Source: Bacteroidota bacterium
GTDB lineage: Bacteria; Bacteroidota; Rhodothermia; Rhodothermales; Bin80
Length of the DNA stretch: 49,244 nucleotides
Direction of reading: 5' to 3'
NCBI GenBank assembly: GCA_026709335.1
Contig: JAPOTE010000090.1
Coordinates: 1-49,244, forward strand
Shown here piece by piece: positions 2,157 to 11,920 of this stretch (its first letter is position 1; every line of letters starts with the position of its first letter). The position numbers were made by a program, and so were the translations under genes. The notes below the pieces were generated by a model. It did not search any database. It was not told the DNA's origin and saw nothing but the letters and a program-made list of their open reading frames with translations.

Positions 2157-3314
2157 TTGTCAGAGCCTCCTTACACCGTGATGACAAAATCTCGACGCTA
2201 TTCCAAAAAACGTCTGACGGTAACATTTGATCGCGGACCAGCCAAATATTTTCATGGGCGGAAGCAGGTTCTACACAATTTCCGTGAGCTTGCGAGGCAT
2301 TCTGTTGAGGTAGAGGGAGGAACGATCTTCTTGATTCAAGGCGCCCCTGGGGTAGGGAAAAGTGCTCTACTCTACGAATGTGAAAAGATGGCGCAAGATA
2401 GTGGATGGGAGATTACGGAGATTGATCCGCCCGGTTTATGGGACCCGGACCAGTTGCTGCGTTACCTTGGAAAGAAGGGTGGGCTAATCGTTAAAAACGT
2501 GCTAGGAGAGGTTGGTTTTCAGGCAGGTGTCAAGCTTGATGCTGAGGTTGAGCGCTTTCATCTCACAACGTTGGATATACTTAAGCATGGTAAGAAGCCG
2601 TTGCTTCTCATTTTAGACGAAGCACAAATGTTGGGAACCACCAGCAAACCTCTCGGGGGGCGAGCCGAGATCGCGTCTATCGTACTTAAGGCGATACATA
2701 ATGGCACACTCAATAGGCCTGTTATTCTTCTGGCAGCGGGGTTGAACGAAACTAGGGCAGCCTTTGGGAAGCTGGGGATTTCGAGATTTTCACAGCAATA
2801 TATGATAGAGCTCGGAGCGTTGAACAGGAACTCGGAGCGTGCGATTATTCAGGACTGGATCATAAAAGAGGGTAGAGCCAAAGGAGATATAACGGAATGG
2901 ATAGATGCCATAGCACAGGAAACACATGGCTGGCCCCAGCATATTCAAGCCTATGTGAAACCTGCTTCAGACCAGCTTAAGGCAAATAGCGGGATCATGA
3001 CGTTAGAAAGACTGGATGTCGCGCTGGAAGCAGGGCGAGAAGGTCGCAAAGGATACTATAAGCAACGGACGGATGATTTTCGTGGAGATCAGCTCCATTG
3101 TTTGGCAAGGTGTATTCCAAAATCCCCTCGGGAAAAACCCGCTGGATATAGAGACATTATGTCTTCGCTGAAGAAAGAGTATGACAAAATAGAAGCGCAA
3201 GAACTGTTTAGTGACTTTGAGAAGAAGGGAATCTTGGAGAAGAGTGGAATGGGGTATGCTGTTCCAATCCCTTCCATGCATACCTGGCTGAAGGATACGT
3301 ATGATCCCGAATAA
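2157..3314 (+). CDS. AAA ATPase of unknown role
   Basis: A 385-residue (from TTG at 2157) or 377-residue (from ATG at 2181) P-loop ATPase; no good ribosome binding site decides between the two. Walker A is GAPGVGKS at residues 62-69 and Walker B is LLLILDEAQ ending about 157. The order N-terminal basic tail, P-loop domain, then a C-terminal part likely to be a winged helix resembles ORC1/Cdc6-like or TnsC/TniB-like standalone ATPases, in which ATP binding switches interaction with DNA or a partner protein. No partner gene is adjacent on either side, so the function is not predictable. Its position next to a nuclease remnant and an IS end suggests an accessory or defence setting. It is complete and unbroken. 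Confidence 0.75.
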   Translation: MSEPPYTVMTKSRRYSKKRLTVTFDRGPAKYFHGRKQVLHNFRELARHSVEVEGGTIFLIQGAPGVGKSALLYECEKMAQDSGWEITEIDPPGLWDPDQLLRYLGKKGGLIVKNVLGEVGFQAGVKLDAEVERFHLTTLDILKHGKKPLLLILDEAQMLGTTSKPLGGRAEIASIVLKAIHNGTLNRPVILLAAGLNETRAAFGKLGISRFSQQYMIELGALNRNSERAIIQDWIIKEGRAKGDITEWIDAIAQETHGWPQHIQAYVKPASDQLKANSGIMTLERLDVALEAGREGRKGYYKQRTDDFRGDQLHCLARCIPKSPREKPAGYRDIMSSLKKEYDKIEAQELFSDFEKKGILEKSGMGYAVPIPSMHTWLKDTYDPE

Positions 3315-3502: not shown

Positions 3503-4951
3503 TCACGAGAGAATTCCCTGGATAACCCTCCCTCCTACATCCGTCAGGCGAATATCGCGCCCGCTAAACCGGTAGGTCAGATACTCATGCTCCAGGCCCA
3601 GCAGGTATAGCATCGTCGCATGAAGATCGTGAATAGTGGTTTTCTGGTCGATGACACGGTAGCCATATTCATCTGTGGCTCCATACGTAGTCCCTCCTTT
3701 GATTCCAGCTCCTGCAAGCCAGATACTGAATGCTGACGGATTGTGATCTCGGCCGTTCGTACCCTGTGCAAAGGGAGTTCGTCCAAATTCTCCTGCCCAA
3801 ATAACGAGTGTATCTTCAAAGAGGCCACGGCTTTTCAGGTCTCTGATTAAACCTGCGATGGGCTGATCTACAGCGTGAGCATTCAACTCATGTCCTTCCT
3901 TTAGATTGGAGTGCTGATCCCATCTGTCTGCGGCGACATTGGGGCAGGTAAGTTCAATGAACCGGACACCTCGCTCAACCAAGCGCCTCGCTAACAGGCA
4001 CTGAGTGGCATAAATACGGGTATTCGGATCAGATGAATCCATGCCGTACAGCTTCTTTGTCACCTCTGTTTCACCAGAAAGATCGGTCAATTCAGGAACG
4101 GAAGCCTGCATCCGGTAAGCTAATTCATAATTTGTGATTGCCGACTCCACATCATCCACATGGCCAATTCGGCCAAGCAAATGCTTGTCTGTTCGACTCA
4201 TCAGGTTCAGTTTTCTACGCTGCAGATCAGAGGTTACCTCTCGAGGCTCAATATTTGGCAAGGGCATGTCACCAGCCTGGAAAATAGATCCCTGATATGC
4301 AGCAGGAAGAAATCCGCTGTTGAAATTATCCAATCCCCCAGGAGGAATCAAGCCACCGTCCAGGACGATATATCCCGGAAGATCCTGGTTTTCGCTGCCA
4401 AGGCCATAGTTCACCCAAGCTCCCATAGAGGGGCGTCCCTGAATCCCGATTCCCGTATGAAGGAAATAATTGGCGTTCGTATGTTCTGGAAAATCCGCCA
4501 CCATCGATCGAACCACCGCAAGATCATCCACACATTGACCGACATGGGGAAACAGGTCACTGACCTCAATGCCGCTTTCACCATAACGGTGAAAATCCCA
4601 GGGGCTTTTCAGAATCTTGCCAATACTGTTGAACTGGGTTGCATCTACCGAAAATTTGTCGTGCGGGTTCTCACCATTCTCTTTCGCAAGACGCGGTTTC
4701 GGGTCAAAACTGTCAACTTGGGAGACACCGCCATCCATATACAGGAAAATGATACTTCGTGCCTTCGGAATCAAGCCGCCAGGTCGGGGATGCAACGGAT
4801 TCGTTTCTGGTCGGGAACCCTGTGCAATCATATTGCCAAAGGCAGAGCTTCCCATGAGTCCCAGAAGGGCTACACCACCGAAACCGTTCCTGCACATGGT
4901 CAGCATTTCTCGGCGGGTCATTCGATAATTGAGACGATGTGGAGTACTCAT
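3503..4951 (-). CDS. DUF1501 family protein (sulfatase-like, Tat-type signal)
   Basis: A 482-residue DUF1501 protein, a family related to alkaline phosphatase/sulfatase-fold enzymes and usually encoded beside DUF1549/DUF1553 cytochrome proteins in Planctomycetes, Verrucomicrobia and Rhodothermota. The N terminus carries an arginine pair (TRREML, R13-R14) and a hydrophobic stretch, suggesting Tat export. Family hallmarks are YMDGGVSQVDSFDPKP near residue 71, WAGEFGRTP and GRDHNPSAFSIW, which include probable metal ligands. Its ATG overlaps the TAA of the upstream DUF1553 gene (TAATG at 4949-4953), so the two are translationally coupled and probably work together in the periplasm. The substrate of this pair is not established; sulfated or complex polysaccharide is the usual guess. 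Confidence 0.9.
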   Translation of the reverse strand: MSTPHRLNYRMTRREMLTMCRNGFGGVALLGLMGSSAFGNMIAQGSRPETNPLHPRPGGLIPKARSIIFLYMDGGVSQVDSFDPKPRLAKENGENPHDKFSVDATQFNSIGKILKSPWDFHRYGESGIEVSDLFPHVGQCVDDLAVVRSMVADFPEHTNANYFLHTGIGIQGRPSMGAWVNYGLGSENQDLPGYIVLDGGLIPPGGLDNFNSGFLPAAYQGSIFQAGDMPLPNIEPREVTSDLQRRKLNLMSRTDKHLLGRIGHVDDVESAITNYELAYRMQASVPELTDLSGETEVTKKLYGMDSSDPNTRIYATQCLLARRLVERGVRFIELTCPNVAADRWDQHSNLKEGHELNAHAVDQPIAGLIRDLKSRGLFEDTLVIWAGEFGRTPFAQGTNGRDHNPSAFSIWLAGAGIKGGTTYGATDEYGYRVIDQKTTIHDLHATMLYLLGLEHEYLTYRFSGRDIRLTDVGGRVIQGILS

Positions 4952-7950
4952 TAGATCAGGTAGATAAATTCCTTTTGATTGAAAATGACATGGCAGTAGG
5001 CAGTCCAGATTTCCAAAGCATCCATGACTGATTTTGAGTCCAGGCCAAGTTCTTCAGCTTCAGTATTGATGAAAGACTGTGCTTCCATCAGTTCGTTTGG
5101 ATCAGGCAGCCTGGAAAACGCCGTCAGATAGATTACCTCAATCCGGTTTGTAATATCTTGGTGAGGCTGTTTCACCAGTAGCTCACCCCAACGTGTTGCC
5201 TGTTGGGCGATAAACTCATCATTGAGCATCGTAAGGGACTGTGCGGGGACATTGCTCGTATTACGTGTGCCGAACGTGGAGAACGGGATAGGCATATCAA
5301 AAGAGAGCATCATCGGTGACAGAAAGTTGCGGCGTATCGCAATGTAAATACTACGCCGCCCGTATCCATCCAGCGGTCCATTGACTGCAGGACGTCCTCT
5401 TCCTTTCATAAATTCAGTCAGATGAACGGGCACCGGAGGGCCGTACATCGTGGAATTCAATTGCCCCGATACCGCCAGAACCCCATCCCGAATGGCTTCG
5501 GCTTCCAGTCTACGAACGGGGTAGTGAGACAAAAGCAAATTTGATGGGTCAGCATCAAGGGTTACTTCGGATGCTTTTGAGGAACGCTGAAAAGCCTCTG
5601 AAAGGACAATTTCTCGGAGAATAGATTTGATGGACCATCCAGACTGCACGAAGCGTAGCGCTAAATAGTCTAGTAATTCAGGGTGGGTTGGCAGTCCCCC
5701 CTGCGCCCCGAAATTATCCACAGTTTCAACGATCCCTCTCCCAAATGCATGATGCCATAACCGATTAACCATGACACGAGCAGTGAGTGGGTTTGAGGGA
5801 TCCACGATAGCTTTCGCAAATTCCAGCCGTCCACTGGATGTCTGAGTAAACGGAAAGTTTGTTGAATCTAGGGCGGTTAAAAATCTGTGTGGAATGGGCT
5901 CTCCGACGGGGATTTTATAATTCCCGCGCCCGAAAATTGCGCTGGTGACATTATCTCCCTCAGTCATGCCAATAAAAAATTCTGCAGAAGGGAGAAGATT
6001 TTTCGTTTGATCTCTCTGACGAATTTGATCAGGAACCTGAGGGCGCGGTAGATCCCCGGATTCCAAAGCCCGGTTGATAGTTGCAAGCTGCGATGTGGTG
6101 ACATTTGTTGTTGCCCAGGCATGAATTGAAGATCCCAACGAAGTCTGTTGGTGCTCAAGGCGTGCCAATGATGGTGCTGTATGGTCGTGGGCTACGGCAT
6201 AAGAAATTTCAAAGTAGGATGAATCATCAATCGAAAGCATATGCTGATCCGTCACATAGCGATTCTTGTCATACGTACCGACCAAGAGTTCCAAATAAGC
6301 TTTGTGGCCTTTCCACATACTCACATCAAACTGGTAGGGGATGAGTACATCACTGCTCAATTCCCGGTCAAGTTCTCCATGAATCGGTGCACGAATCAAC
6401 TGGAAGTTGTCAATCACCAATCGCAGTGCAGATTTGTACCCTTGGGCCATGACGGTAATTGAGTCATGGACGAGGGTAAAGGTAGGAGAGCGAAGCGTAC
6501 CGGGAATCCCTTCCGAGATTTGACGGCTGCTGGCTACTTGTTCGGTGAGCCGCTGCAAACGATCTCCCTTGAAGAGAGGAGCGCCGTGAAGAGGAGCACC
6601 TTCAAATGCGACACCGTCGGGAATCCATCCACCTAGAGAGCCATTGCGAAAATCCCCCAGAAATTCCCAATCCTCGCTGCTGGTTTGCACGGTTGGTGTG
6701 CTTGAACTCGTTCGTCTGACGGATACGGTTGCAGGTTTGCTTAGCGATGACTGCCACTTACTGGCTATATCCGAGCGGAGGGTTTGATTGAAGTCGATGA
6801 GGTTTGAAATTCCCATGAAGTAGTCCTCTGAAAGAATCGGGGCAGGAGTAAAGCGAGCACTCTCAACAATACCATACAGTGAATAGTAATCCTCGGTTGG
6901 AATCGGGTCAAACTTGTGATCATGACAGCGTGCACAGGAGACGGTCAATCCCTGGAATGTTTTCGTGGTCACATCAATGATGTTATCAATGCGATCTGCT
7001 TCATCAATACGGGTATCAACAGGACTGTGTTTTCCTTCCCCAAGCGTGAAATACGCCGTTCCAATCATGGATTCATTGAATCCGTGGTCGGGATTGCGCC
7101 TGGGCTGTTGGAGAACATCCCCGGCAAGATGTTCCATCACAATTTGATCGTAAGGTACATCTTCATTGAATGCCCTGATCAGGTAATCTCTGTATTGCCA
7201 TGCACCCTGAATAGTAAAATCAAATTCGTGTCCCTTTGACTCCGCATATCGGACGAGGTCCATCCAATGGCGTGCCCATCGTTCGCCGTATGCAGGAGAG
7301 GCAAGGAGGCTGTCTACAAGCCGCACATATGCATCCGGCGATTCATCCTTCTTGAATGCTTGAACGGTGCTAGGCGAAGGGGGAAGTCCGGTCAGCACGT
7401 AAGAAACGCGCCGAATTAGGCTGGTTCGGGGTGCTGGGGGCGCAGGAGAGATTCTTTCTGCCATCAGCCTCTCCTCGAGTAAATCATCAATAGAGCGCGG
7501 GCCTTCGGGGCTTTGTGGTGGAATCAGTGCCCAATGGGTTTTGTACTCCGCTCCTTGGTCAATCCATTTTGAGAGTAGCGCGATTTCGTGTTCAGTGAGC
7601 ACTTTATTCATCTGCGGAGGAGGCATCCGTTCCGTTGGATCTTCCGCTTGAATGCGTTGAATGAGTAAACTGCGTTTTGCATTTCCGGGGACAATTGCTC
7701 GACCATCGGAACGCTGGGCCGTCGCTCCGGCATAGGTGTCCAGACGCAATTCTGCTTCTCGGGTACTGATGTCTGGACCATGACATACATAACATGAGTT
7801 TGAGAGAATTGGTCGTATATGGTAATTAAAATCCACCTGATTTGGTAATTTGTAAGTAGTATCATGTCTAGAGCATCCAAGCGATGACAAGGAAAACATA
7901 ATGATGATCCAAACAATACGATAATCAATCAGGACTCTGATTGCAACCAT
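4951..7950 (-). CDS. Lipoprotein with planctomycete-type cytochrome C, DUF1549 and DUF1553 domains
   Basis: The frame is open from 8016, but its first 22 codons run into the MITE-like repeat. The ATG at 7950 is preferred, giving 999 residues with a lipoprotein-like signal (LSSLGC, lipidated Cys about residue 26). A PSCyt1 haem motif CYVCH follows at about 53-57. Next come DUF1549, with a second CARCH motif, and a C-terminal DUF1553 (for example NPLTARVMVNRLWHHAFGRG). Family members are outer, periplasmic proteins thought to act in electron transfer linked to polysaccharide or sugar breakdown. The gene is coupled by a TAATG overlap to the downstream DUF1501 gene. The repeat lies directly upstream of the start, so the present promoter is either within or beyond the repeat. 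Confidence 0.88.
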   Translation of the reverse strand: MVAIRVLIDYRIVWIIIMFSLSSLGCSRHDTTYKLPNQVDFNYHIRPILSNSCYVCHGPDISTREAELRLDTYAGATAQRSDGRAIVPGNAKRSLLIQRIQAEDPTERMPPPQMNKVLTEHEIALLSKWIDQGAEYKTHWALIPPQSPEGPRSIDDLLEERLMAERISPAPPAPRTSLIRRVSYVLTGLPPSPSTVQAFKKDESPDAYVRLVDSLLASPAYGERWARHWMDLVRYAESKGHEFDFTIQGAWQYRDYLIRAFNEDVPYDQIVMEHLAGDVLQQPRRNPDHGFNESMIGTAYFTLGEGKHSPVDTRIDEADRIDNIIDVTTKTFQGLTVSCARCHDHKFDPIPTEDYYSLYGIVESARFTPAPILSEDYFMGISNLIDFNQTLRSDIASKWQSSLSKPATVSVRRTSSSTPTVQTSSEDWEFLGDFRNGSLGGWIPDGVAFEGAPLHGAPLFKGDRLQRLTEQVASSRQISEGIPGTLRSPTFTLVHDSITVMAQGYKSALRLVIDNFQLIRAPIHGELDRELSSDVLIPYQFDVSMWKGHKAYLELLVGTYDKNRYVTDQHMLSIDDSSYFEISYAVAHDHTAPSLARLEHQQTSLGSSIHAWATTNVTTSQLATINRALESGDLPRPQVPDQIRQRDQTKNLLPSAEFFIGMTEGDNVTSAIFGRGNYKIPVGEPIPHRFLTALDSTNFPFTQTSSGRLEFAKAIVDPSNPLTARVMVNRLWHHAFGRGIVETVDNFGAQGGLPTHPELLDYLALRFVQSGWSIKSILREIVLSEAFQRSSKASEVTLDADPSNLLLSHYPVRRLEAEAIRDGVLAVSGQLNSTMYGPPVPVHLTEFMKGRGRPAVNGPLDGYGRRSIYIAIRRNFLSPMMLSFDMPIPFSTFGTRNTSNVPAQSLTMLNDEFIAQQATRWGELLVKQPHQDITNRIEVIYLTAFSRLPDPNELMEAQSFINTEAEELGLDSKSVMDALEIWTAYCHVIFNQKEFIYLI

Positions 7951-7976
7951 TGGTCCAAGAGGATTTAATGATTCAA

Positions 7977-8092
7977 GAGAACCTCTTGCAAAACCCCTGA
8001 AATTGAGCGTAAACATTGCCCTGGAAGCACCTGAGGGAATCTTTTCATCTGAAAACAGAGGTTTTGCAAGAACCTCAAGATATAGAAATTTC
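7977..8092. repeat. MITE-like repeat, copy A
   Basis: A ~115-bp unit begins GAGAACCTCTTGCAAAA and ends near TTTTGCAAGAACCTC, so the core TCTTGCAAAA is inverted at its two ends. A second copy in the same orientation is at 9185-9301, about nine-tenths identical by eye, and similarity continues a few bases past the terminal motif. The copy sits between the divergent DUF1553 and xylanase genes, ending about 15 bases before the xylanase ATG. It encodes nothing itself. The size and terminal inversion fit a non-autonomous IS derivative, but the parent element is not in the window. Confidence 0.75.
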
Positions 8093-8107
8093 GTGATTTA
8101 ACAGAGG

Positions 8108-9178
8108 ATGCCGGGAGTTAGAATTTTATGGTTGGCTGGTTTTATGGTCCTGGCGGTTGCATGCAAAGATAGTTCTGTTACAGGGCAAGATCCTGAAACT
8201 ATGGAGGAATACACTGCATTGCGATCCGTGGCTTCCTTCCCCGTTGGAGTTGCGCTTCAGTCAAACCGGCTCAACCTTGCACCTCACTCGGAGATTACCC
8301 GAACTGTTTTTAACAGTGTAACAGCTGAGTATGAGATGAAGATGAGGCATTTGACGGATCCATCAGGAAACTACATTTGGACTCGAGCGGATCAATTAAC
8401 AGCGTTTGCGAAGGAATATGAGATGCAGGTACACGGACATACATTGGTATGGCATCAATCTACACCACTATGGCTGGAAAATTTCAATGGAACAGATGTT
8501 GAGTTTGAAGGGGTGGTGCAGACTTATATCACGGATGTTATTCACCGGTATAAGGATGATATCATAAGCTGGGATGTGATCAACGAAGCATTTGAAGATG
8601 GATCGGGTGCGCTACGAAATTCGATCTTCCGACGTCGCATGGGATCGGATTACATGGCACGATTATTTCAGTATGCCCGATCAGCTGATCCGAATGCACT
8701 TTTGTTTTACAATGACTACGGTACAATTTGGGATGTAAAAAAACGGGATTCAATGCTAGCCATGATAGATGATTTTCAAGCTCGCGGTATCCCGATTGAT
8801 GGGGTTGGACTTCAGATGCATATTACCTACAATACTCCGCCGCTCTCTGACATCATTGCCGTCATGGACGCTATCGTTCAGCGAGGCCTCAAGATTCATA
8901 TTTCTGAAATGGACGTTCGTGTCAACCCTCAGGGAGATCTATCTCAACTGACCAATGCACGGAGCGAGCTTCAAAAAAAGCGGGTCAATGAGATTGTGGC
9001 TGCGTTTATGGACCTGCCTGAAGGTAGCCGGTTCGCTATTACTTGGTGGGGGTTACGAGATCCCGAAAGTTGGTTGATTGATTTTTGGGGAAATCCGGAA
9101 TGGCCTTTGCTCTTTGATAGTGGCTATAGACCAAAGCCAGCGTATGAGGGATTTCTTGAAGCATTGATCACAAACTGA
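8108..9178 (+). CDS. Endo-1,4-beta-xylanase, GH10 family, lipoprotein
   Basis: A 356-residue glycoside hydrolase family 10 enzyme that cleaves internal beta-1,4 bonds in xylan with retention of configuration. A lipoprotein signal ends LAVAC (Cys19), so it is probably anchored to a membrane surface. GH10 hallmarks include HGHTLVWHQSTPLWL at about 109-123, the acid/base Glu160 in WDVINEAF, and the nucleophile Glu267 in IHISEMDV. The length matches a single catalytic domain with no carbohydrate-binding module. The gene is bracketed by two direct copies of a MITE-like repeat, one ending just before the ATG and one starting 6 bases after the TGA. The sole gene of this small cassette may therefore have been acquired or may be lost as a unit. 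Confidence 0.95.
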   Translation: MPGVRILWLAGFMVLAVACKDSSVTGQDPETMEEYTALRSVASFPVGVALQSNRLNLAPHSEITRTVFNSVTAEYEMKMRHLTDPSGNYIWTRADQLTAFAKEYEMQVHGHTLVWHQSTPLWLENFNGTDVEFEGVVQTYITDVIHRYKDDIISWDVINEAFEDGSGALRNSIFRRRMGSDYMARLFQYARSADPNALLFYNDYGTIWDVKKRDSMLAMIDDFQARGIPIDGVGLQMHITYNTPPLSDIIAVMDAIVQRGLKIHISEMDVRVNPQGDLSQLTNARSELQKKRVNEIVAAFMDLPEGSRFAITWWGLRDPESWLIDFWGNPEWPLLFDSGYRPKPAYEGFLEALITN

Positions 9179-9184
9179 ATTTCA

Positions 9185-9301
9185 GAGAACCTCTTGCAAA
9201 ATCCCCGAAATTGAGCATAAACATTGCTCTGGAAGCATCTGAGGGAATTTTTTCTGTCTGAAAACAGAGGTTTTGCAAGAACCTCCAGAGACAAAAATTT
9301 C
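9185..9301. repeat. MITE-like repeat, copy B
   Basis: Second direct copy of the unit at 7977-8092, starting 6 bases after the xylanase stop codon. The terminal TCTTGCAAAA motifs are again inverted, and differences from copy A are scattered substitutions plus a small indel near 9255. A 77-codon open frame at 9224-9457 begins inside it and is not considered a gene. Confidence 0.75.
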
Positions 9302-9556
9302 TTGCGCTTTTTGATTAGTCATTATTTTTCGAGTGAATCTTACGAAATAGCAACTGCGCGTATCCGGAAATATTCACTCTTTCATAAAGTACATGTGTGC
9401 GATCTGAACGTCAGACACACGATTCCAGAAACCCATCTTAAAATTTGCGAATTTTGAACCTCGACTACGCCATTAGAGTCGCTTTCCAGTTGACTTCTGT
9501 AAATCTGTAAGGCGAAGTAACGTCGACTCCCTTGGTGGTGCTGCAATAATCCGATT
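9302..9556. other. Intergenic region, nothing recognised
   Basis: About 255 bases between repeat copy B and the end of the SLC13 permease gene. No conserved frame, tRNA or clear terminator hairpin is visible. Confidence 0.4.
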
Positions 9557-11920
9557 TTATATTGGCCATATTAAGGGCAAGAAAAAGACCACAAGCAGAA
9601 GGAGGAGTAAGAAAAGAGGTGCGCCTGTACGCGTGTAATCTGTTACCTTGTACCCGCCAACACTCATTACCAGGAGGTTCACCGGGTGGCCGAAGGGAGT
9701 CAGGAACGCACAGGAAGAGCCCACGGCCACGACCATGAGCAGTGATTGAGCAGAGAAGCCCAATTCCAAAGCGGTGCTAAGTGCAATTGGTGCAACAAGG
9801 ACGGCTACCGCTGATGTGGGGATAAATTGGGCCGCAAGGGCGCAGAGTAGAAAGAGGCTTGCAATCAGGAATCGAGGGCCAGCATCCGCTGCTCGTCCGA
9901 TGACTTCACGCGCAAGAAGTTCTGCGGCACCGGATTCCTCCATGGCAAGTCCGAGAGCCAACATTCCGCCAAGCAGTACTACGACTCTCCACTCAATGAG
10001 TTTGTAGACTTCGTTTCCCTTGATGCATCCGGAGAACACCATAAGCAGAGCACCGAGAAGGGCGGCAATGTAAACTGGAAGGAGGTTGAGTGAAGCTGAC
10101 AGGATGACGCCGAGCATGATTGCTCCTGCAATCGGAGCCCGGCGGGTTCGGAATACCTCACTGAGCCCGGGTGTGAGCATCAGGAAGCGTGTATCATTGG
10201 CGAGTAGCTGAATCTTTTTCCGCTGGCCGTAAACAAGGAGCGCATCTCCAAACTGGAGGGGCGTTTCACTAAGGTGAATACTGGAGTGAATGGTTTCGCC
10301 ACTTCGCCAAATCGCGGGGATGGTCAAACCGAACGAATCCCGAAAGAAGATCTCACTCAGTGTTTTTCCCACTATGTGTGAGGTGGGGGCAAGTGTAACC
10401 TCCGCGAAGCCAACTTCTTCGGACTCCAGATCCGTGACCATGGAAGGGCCATCTATTTCGTGTGGTTCAAGCGCCTGGAGGGCCTGAAGGAGGGCATACC
10501 GCTCTGGAGATCCCTGAATAATGATTCGATTTCCGGGTCTGAGGATGTCGGAAGCCCCGGGGAGGAGGTTTTTTTTTGAGTCTCCGCTACGATGAATATC
10601 AAGAACCGTGAGGTCAAAGGCATGACCAAGGCGAGTAGAAACCAGGGTTCGTCCATCCATGCCAGATCCTTCAGGGATTTCAAGTTGCATCAGCCAACGA
10701 TCAAAGTCATACTCCCGGGGATCAATTGAATTAATAGAGGCGAAGTCATCGGTGAAAGTAAGTTGCAGAAGCAGTTCTTCTTCACCGAACAGGAGAAGAA
10801 AGTCACCAGCCTGAATTCGGGTTTCCTGAAGAGATGATCGTAGAATGATCCCATTGCGCTCAATAGCCATGATATGAGCGCGAAAGCGGTTTCGAAAATC
10901 TAGTTCTTGCACAGGGATTCCAATGAGGTTGGAATTTTGTGTGATTTTAGCCCGTGCGAAGGTTGCAGAGCTATCCATCAGAGTCGCAAGAATGCTCTCA
11001 CGCTTGGTACGGATTTTCTTCAGTTGCCCCCATGAACGCAGATCATTGATAGCATCCGGCCGACCCTCAAACACGAGGATATCCTCATTCTGGAGCTTAA
11101 ACTTTGGCTCAGGCGCTCTGAGGAAGTGTCCCTTTCGCTGGACAGCGAGCAGATCAACTCCCATGATACGCCCGAGGTGGGCTTCCACAAGAGTTTGTCC
11201 ATGGAGTTTGGAGCGCCGAGGTATTCGTAAGCAGAATACTGTGTCATCCAGAGCGTAGCGATCCCGAAGGCTGGTTTCCCCCATAGATCGCTCCTGGTTA
11301 CTTCGCCGATCAGGGAGAAAGTGGCGACCAGCGAGAATCATATACAGAATTCCCAGAGCAAGCGCCGCGGCTCCCACCGGGGTGAATGAAAAAAGTCCGA
11401 AGGAGCCTTGGCCTGAGCGTACAAGAATGGTTGAGAGCAGGATATTCGGTCCGGTTCCTATGAGTGTAGTCATACCACCCAGAAGTGAGGCAAAGGCGAG
11501 CGGAATCAGAAGCCTGGAAGGGCGGATTCCCAGTCGGCGTGCGATATCAAGCACTACCGGTAACAAAAGTGCGGTAGCAGCAATATTATTCATCACGCCA
11601 GACATCAGCCCCGCTGCAAGCATCATGACCATCGTAAGGCGAAGTGGGGAAGTTCCGGCAAAGCGCATCAACTGGGTTCCCAGCAGATTTGCCACCCCCG
11701 TACGGTACAACCCTCCGCTCAGAACGAGCACCGCTGAAATTGTAACTACGGCCGGATTTGCAAATCCCTCAATAGCACGCGACATGGGGATCACACCGCT
11801 AATTGCCAGCGCGAGTAGAACGATGAGTGCTACGCCGTCATACCGAACCCATTCTGTGACAAAAAGGACAATGGCGCCCGCAACGATCGCAAGGACTATA
11901 AGGATGTCAGGGCTTAGCAT
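9557..11920 (-). CDS. SLC13/DASS-type permease with RCK_C domains
   Basis: A 787-residue inner-membrane transporter of the SLC13 (divalent anion:Na+ symporter, CitT/SLT1-like) family. Residues about 1-205 hold the first block of hydrophobic helices, including the family stretch GVMNNIAATALLLPVVLD. About 215-580 is cytosolic and contains four successive RCK_C (TrkA-C)-like repeats of 70-80 residues. The final ~200 residues return to membrane helices with QFIPTSAVAVLVAPIA. Proteins with this layout transport sulfate, dicarboxylates or similar anions, and the RCK_C modules likely bind a regulatory ligand. The substrate cannot be fixed from sequence. It stands alone, followed by an unrelated gene on the same strand. 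Confidence 0.92.
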   Translation of the reverse strand: MLSPDILIVLAIVAGAIVLFVTEWVRYDGVALIVLLALAISGVIPMSRAIEGFANPAVVTISAVLVLSGGLYRTGVANLLGTQLMRFAGTSPLRLTMVMMLAAGLMSGVMNNIAATALLLPVVLDIARRLGIRPSRLLIPLAFASLLGGMTTLIGTGPNILLSTILVRSGQGSFGLFSFTPVGAAALALGILYMILAGRHFLPDRRSNQERSMGETSLRDRYALDDTVFCLRIPRRSKLHGQTLVEAHLGRIMGVDLLAVQRKGHFLRAPEPKFKLQNEDILVFEGRPDAINDLRSWGQLKKIRTKRESILATLMDSSATFARAKITQNSNLIGIPVQELDFRNRFRAHIMAIERNGIILRSSLQETRIQAGDFLLLFGEEELLLQLTFTDDFASINSIDPREYDFDRWLMQLEIPEGSGMDGRTLVSTRLGHAFDLTVLDIHRSGDSKKNLLPGASDILRPGNRIIIQGSPERYALLQALQALEPHEIDGPSMVTDLESEEVGFAEVTLAPTSHIVGKTLSEIFFRDSFGLTIPAIWRSGETIHSSIHLSETPLQFGDALLVYGQRKKIQLLANDTRFLMLTPGLSEVFRTRRAPIAGAIMLGVILSASLNLLPVYIAALLGALLMVFSGCIKGNEVYKLIEWRVVVLLGGMLALGLAMEESGAAELLAREVIGRAADAGPRFLIASLFLLCALAAQFIPTSAVAVLVAPIALSTALELGFSAQSLLMVVAVGSSCAFLTPFGHPVNLLVMSVGGYKVTDYTRTGAPLFLLLLLLVVFFLPLIWPI

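What the first reader, a model, noticed from the sequence alone, without database searches (positions are those of the whole stretch)
7977..9301. Xylanase gene framed by two direct copies of a MITE-like repeat
The ~115-bp units at 7977-8092 and 9185-9301 are about 90% identical and lie within ~15 bases of the GH10 gene on both sides. Each has inverted TCTTGCAAAA ends. The arrangement looks like a one-gene cassette that could have been mobilised by a related transposase or could be deleted by recombination between copies. Copy A also sits at the 5' end of the divergent DUF1553 gene, so it may supply or disrupt promoters for both genes.
Basis: seen in the sequence. Interest (0 to 1): 0.6.

Follow-up and report, generated by a model that had tools for sequence, protein, structure and literature searches.

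The report
Two MITE insertions flanking native xylanase
Two short, gene-less jumping elements landed independently on either side of a resident xylanase gene in a Rhodothermales-like bacterium; they belong to a family of at least 40 scattered copies and do not make the gene a mobile cassette, so the arrangement is ordinary.

Summary
The repeat is real. Its true limits are 7979-8076 (98 bp) and 9187-9285 (99 bp). The two copies belong to a MITE family with about 47 full or partial copies detected in this 2.8-Mb genome. 20 of 37 full-length copies have an exact 4-bp target-site duplication (TSD), against 0.7 expected from shuffled flanks. Likely mobilising elements are IS of the IS5/IS1182-like group (DUF772 + DDE_Tnp_1 transposase). 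A complete 1,646-bp copy with matching ends and a 4-bp TSD lies in a congeneric genome, and truncated or assembly-broken copies lie in this one.

The cassette reading fails. Copy A has its own TSD (AAGA/AAGA), copy B has its own (CAGA/CAGA), and each copy's closest relative is elsewhere in the genome. The GH10 gene, divergent from DUF1553, sits at the same place in seven congeners and another genus without the MITE. About one pair this close is expected by chance. Two MITE-bearing congeners lack GH10, but no MITE is left at the locus. Copy A lies inside the short divergent GH10/DUF1553 promoter region (DUF1553 really starts at 7950), so an effect on expression is possible but untested. A new family of a known kind, of low interest.

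The parts
7979..8076 (+). MITE copy A, 98 bp, terminal inverted repeats TTGCAAAAC/GTTTTGCAA inside GAACCTC direct ends
7975..7978 (.). left target-site duplication of copy A (AAGA)
8077..8080 (.). right target-site duplication of copy A (AAGA)
9187..9285 (+). MITE copy B, 99 bp, same orientation as A
9183..9186 (.). left target-site duplication of copy B (CAGA)
9286..9289 (.). right target-site duplication of copy B (CAGA)
8108..9178 (+). GH10 glycoside hydrolase (xylanase-type) with apparent lipoprotein signal; conserved at this place in congeners
4951..7950 (-). PSCyt1/DUF1549/DUF1553 protein, divergent from GH10; start re-assigned from 8016 to 7950
9557..11920 (-). CitMHS/TrkA-C transporter, convergent neighbour, syntenic in G006

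Best explanation
Both repeats are separate insertions of one non-autonomous ~98-bp MITE family. Shown: many dispersed copies, inverted ends, a 4-bp target-site duplication of its own at each of the two copies, all tested sites outside long ORFs, and IS with matching ends in the genus and in this genome. Inferred: the MITE is moved in trans by a DUF772/DDE_Tnp_1 transposase of the IS5/IS1182-like group, which recognises the shared TTGCAAAACC ends, inserts into AT-rich intergenic DNA and duplicates 4 bp. The GH10 gene is resident and was bracketed by coincidence. Copy A split a divergent promoter region of about 55 bp and may alter transcription of GH10 and DUF1553 (inferred, untested).
For: About 47 full or partial copies in the genome. 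20 of 37 full-length copies have an exact 4-bp TSD against a shuffled mean of 0.7 (maximum 5), with no comparable excess at other lengths. A has AAGA/AAGA and B has CAGA/CAGA. Nearest relative of A is on C73 (100%), of B on C78 (98%); A and B are 93% alike. No ORF over 75 aa spans any of the 41 joined sites tested, whereas 88% of random window points lie in an ORF of at least 100 aa. IS with ends GAGCCTCTTGCAAAACC: complete 1,646-bp copy in G006 with TSD ATTA and a DUF772 + DDE_Tnp_1 transposase; a truncated copy on C46 and several contigs broken ~55 bp inside the IS in this genome. GH10 next to divergent DUF1553 without MITE in seven congeners and in G012. Expected number of pairs within 1.2 kb by chance is about 0.9.
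Against: No intact IS copy is in this assembly, so the mobilising transposase is inferred from shared ends and TSD length. Congeners are too diverged in the intergenic DNA for a base-exact empty site. The right flanks of A and B are the most similar of 903 pairs (14/19), which I cannot explain except as chance.
Confidence: 0.93

Rival explanations
1. Composite (TIME-COMP-like) mobile cassette: the two MITEs carried GH10 in as a unit.
For: Direct copies tightly bracket one gene; MITE-bounded composites are known (PMC13367494).
Against: Each copy has its own TSD; A and B come from different sub-lineages; GH10 is at the same DUF1553-linked position in congeners that lack the MITE; GH10 occurs once in this genome.
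Confidence: 0.03
2. Conserved structural RNA, terminator or regulatory repeat rather than a transposable element.
For: The single strand folds well; copies lie outside long ORFs; one weak terminator-like hit lies in copy A.
Against: No Rfam match; 4-bp TSDs at 20 of 37 copies; absent from the GH10 locus of congeners; ends shared with an IS. The hairpin is what terminal inverted repeats give.
Confidence: 0.03
3. MITE-mediated deletion of GH10 is at work: recombination between copies removes the gene, explaining its absence in the MITE-rich relatives G001 and G005.
For: The only two other congeners with a related MITE are the two without GH10; A and B share a 29-bp exact run.
Against: In G001 the space between CitMHS and DUF1553 holds an unrelated AAA ATPase gene and no MITE; in G005 other genes follow DUF1553 with no MITE.
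Confidence: 0.04

Closest known systems
MITEAba12 of Moraxellaceae (PMC6382973)
   Same: About 110-bp non-autonomous element with terminal inverted repeats, matched to an IS by its ends and TSD; in AT-rich DNA; 36 of 90 copies retain TSDs.
   Different: 9-bp TSD and ISAba12 as parent; outward transcripts were seen there, not tested here; no sequence relation was tested.
IS5/IS1182-like insertion sequences (DUF772 + DDE_Tnp_1)
   Same: The IS with matching ends encodes this kind of transposase.
   Different: Scores 85 bits against a cutoff of 270 for IS1182 and 67 against 140 for IS5_4, so it is assigned to neither family; the MITE itself has no coding capacity.
TIME-COMPs and the integron mobilization unit (PMC13367494)
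   Same: A gene between two copies of a miniature element.
   Different: Tn3-derived elements; here each miniature element carries its own TSD and the gene is resident.

Membership tests
MITE (non-autonomous IS derivative) | short, no coding capacity, terminal inverted repeats | tested here: met
   98 bp; TTGCAAAAC/GTTTTGCAA ends
MITE (non-autonomous IS derivative) | many dispersed copies | tested here: met
   about 47 full or partial copies
MITE (non-autonomous IS derivative) | target-site duplication of constant length | tested here: met
   20 of 37 with exact 4 bp against 0.7 shuffled
MITE (non-autonomous IS derivative) | autonomous element with matching ends | tested here: met
   complete IS in G006 and partial copies in this genome; transposition in trans not shown
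MITE (non-autonomous IS derivative) | insertion polymorphism | tested here: met
   between species only: absent at this locus in seven congeners; within-species data not available
Composite transposon / TIME-COMP | TSD at the outer ends of the whole unit only | tested here: not met
   A AAGA/AAGA, B CAGA/CAGA
Composite transposon / TIME-COMP | gene absent from the site in relatives, or unit found at several sites | tested here: not met
   gene at the same place in seven congeners and one copy here
IS1182 or IS5 family (the partner IS) | transposase above the curated family cutoff | tested here: not met
   85 bits against 270; 67 bits against 140
Structured RNA family | match to an Rfam model | tested here: not met
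   no match up to E = 1

The most novel reading that the evidence does not exclude
Copy A replaced the spacing of a ~55-bp divergent promoter region and now acts as a shared regulatory element for GH10 and DUF1553, while copy B acts as the GH10 3' end, so that a MITE pair has rewired a resident xylanase gene.
Probability: 0.1. Interest if true: 0.4.

Novelty: new member of a known kind. Interest (0 to 1): 0.15.

Why it matters
It documents a high-copy MITE family and its likely IS partner in a Rhodothermales lineage for which I found no earlier description in the library searched, and it shows how per-copy TSDs and congener synteny separate a coincidental bracket from a mobile cassette. Beyond genome annotation its importance is small.

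Tried and rejected
Composite cassette: rejected on TSDs, copy relationships and synteny. Structural RNA: no Rfam match. Other occurrences of the MITE core: none by exact pattern in genome contigs or viral contigs (records near this genome may be left out there). MITE scar in relatives lacking GH10: none. Sigma-70 promoter scan: nothing at the element, and overall no more than in shuffles. A and B as a local duplication: rejected, since each has a closer relative elsewhere. Paper searches gave analogues but no description of this family.

Full report
What is there. The two repeats are real and more than chance: a 98-bp element at 7979-8076 and a 99-bp element at 9187-9285, 93% identical, in the same orientation, with TTGCAAAAC/GTTTTGCAA inverted ends framed by GAACCTC at both ends. 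Between them is a single GH10 gene (Pfam E = 1e-94).

It is a MITE family. A whole-genome search finds 40 matches (the number listed is 40 in both searches, so probably capped) and the collected loci give 47 distinct full or partial copies in 2.8 Mb. Of 37 full-length interior copies, 20 are flanked by an exact 4-bp duplication; dealing the right flanks out at random gives a mean of 0.7 and a maximum of 5, and no other length shows a comparable excess. When the flanks are joined, no ORF longer than 75 aa spans any of the 41 sites tested, against 88% of random window points lying in an ORF of at least 100 aa. Flanks are AT-rich, 69% against 52% for the window.

Likely mobilising element. The ends match IS in the same genus: a complete 1,646-bp IS in G006, with ends GAGCCTCTTGCAAAACC, flanked by ATTA on both sides, encodes a transposase with DUF772 and DDE_Tnp_1 domains. 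NCBIfam's best hits are IS1182 and IS5 models, both below cutoff. In this genome a truncated copy with the same ends and a related transposase is on C46, and several contigs stop 55 bp inside such an IS, as expected if a repeated IS broke the assembly. Mobilisation in trans is inferred.

Not a cassette. Copy A is flanked by AAGA on both sides and copy B by CAGA on both sides, the mark of two separate insertions. A's closest relative is on C73 (100%) and B's on C78 (98%), so they are not a recent pair. GH10 lies divergent from the DUF1553 gene in G002, G003, G004, G006, G007, G008, G009 and in G012 of another genus, with no MITE; in G006 the CitMHS neighbour is also conserved. With about 47 copies, about 0.9 pairs within 1.2 kb are expected by chance.

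Deletion. The two other congeners carrying a related MITE family, G001 (41 copies) and G005 (8), are also the two without GH10, which prompted a check. In G001 the interval between CitMHS and DUF1553 holds a gene for an AAA ATPase and no MITE; in G005 DUF1553 is followed by other genes and no MITE. So there is no sign that MITE recombination removed the gene.

Regulation. The long DUF1553 ORF starts at 8016 inside the MITE, but homologues align only from about residue 24, so the start is probably 7950. The GH10/DUF1553 intergenic region is then 157 bp, of which 102 bp are MITE plus one TSD, leaving about 55 bp of original DNA (one search printed 155 and 53 from a start at 7952, which is two bases off). 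An effect on expression is plausible, but no promoter signal stands out and none was tested.

Taxonomy.

Noticed in passing
L186:1002-1338 (G000:C46:6001-6337): Five 37-nt direct repeats (CGCTCAACAAAGGCCGAGGCGTTAACCTCGGCGACAC) with ~36-nt spacers, the last degenerate, look like a CRISPR array joined directly to a truncated IS transposase; the repeat occurs nowhere else in the genome. Could be real or an assembly join.
   Followed up: partly
window 2157-3314 and L213:477-1622: The AAA ATPase encoded at 2157-3314 has a 43% identical relative occupying the GH10 position in G001; it may be a dispersed or mobile gene family.
   Followed up: partly
G001 and G005 (L188-L192): A related ~98-bp MITE family with similar ends and part of the same core, 41 and 8 copies; the G001 copies inspected also show 4-bp TSDs.
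   Followed up: partly
window 8077-8095 and 9286-9304: Host DNA just right of both copies is 14/19 identical, the highest of 903 copy pairs, without similarity on the left.
   Followed up: partly
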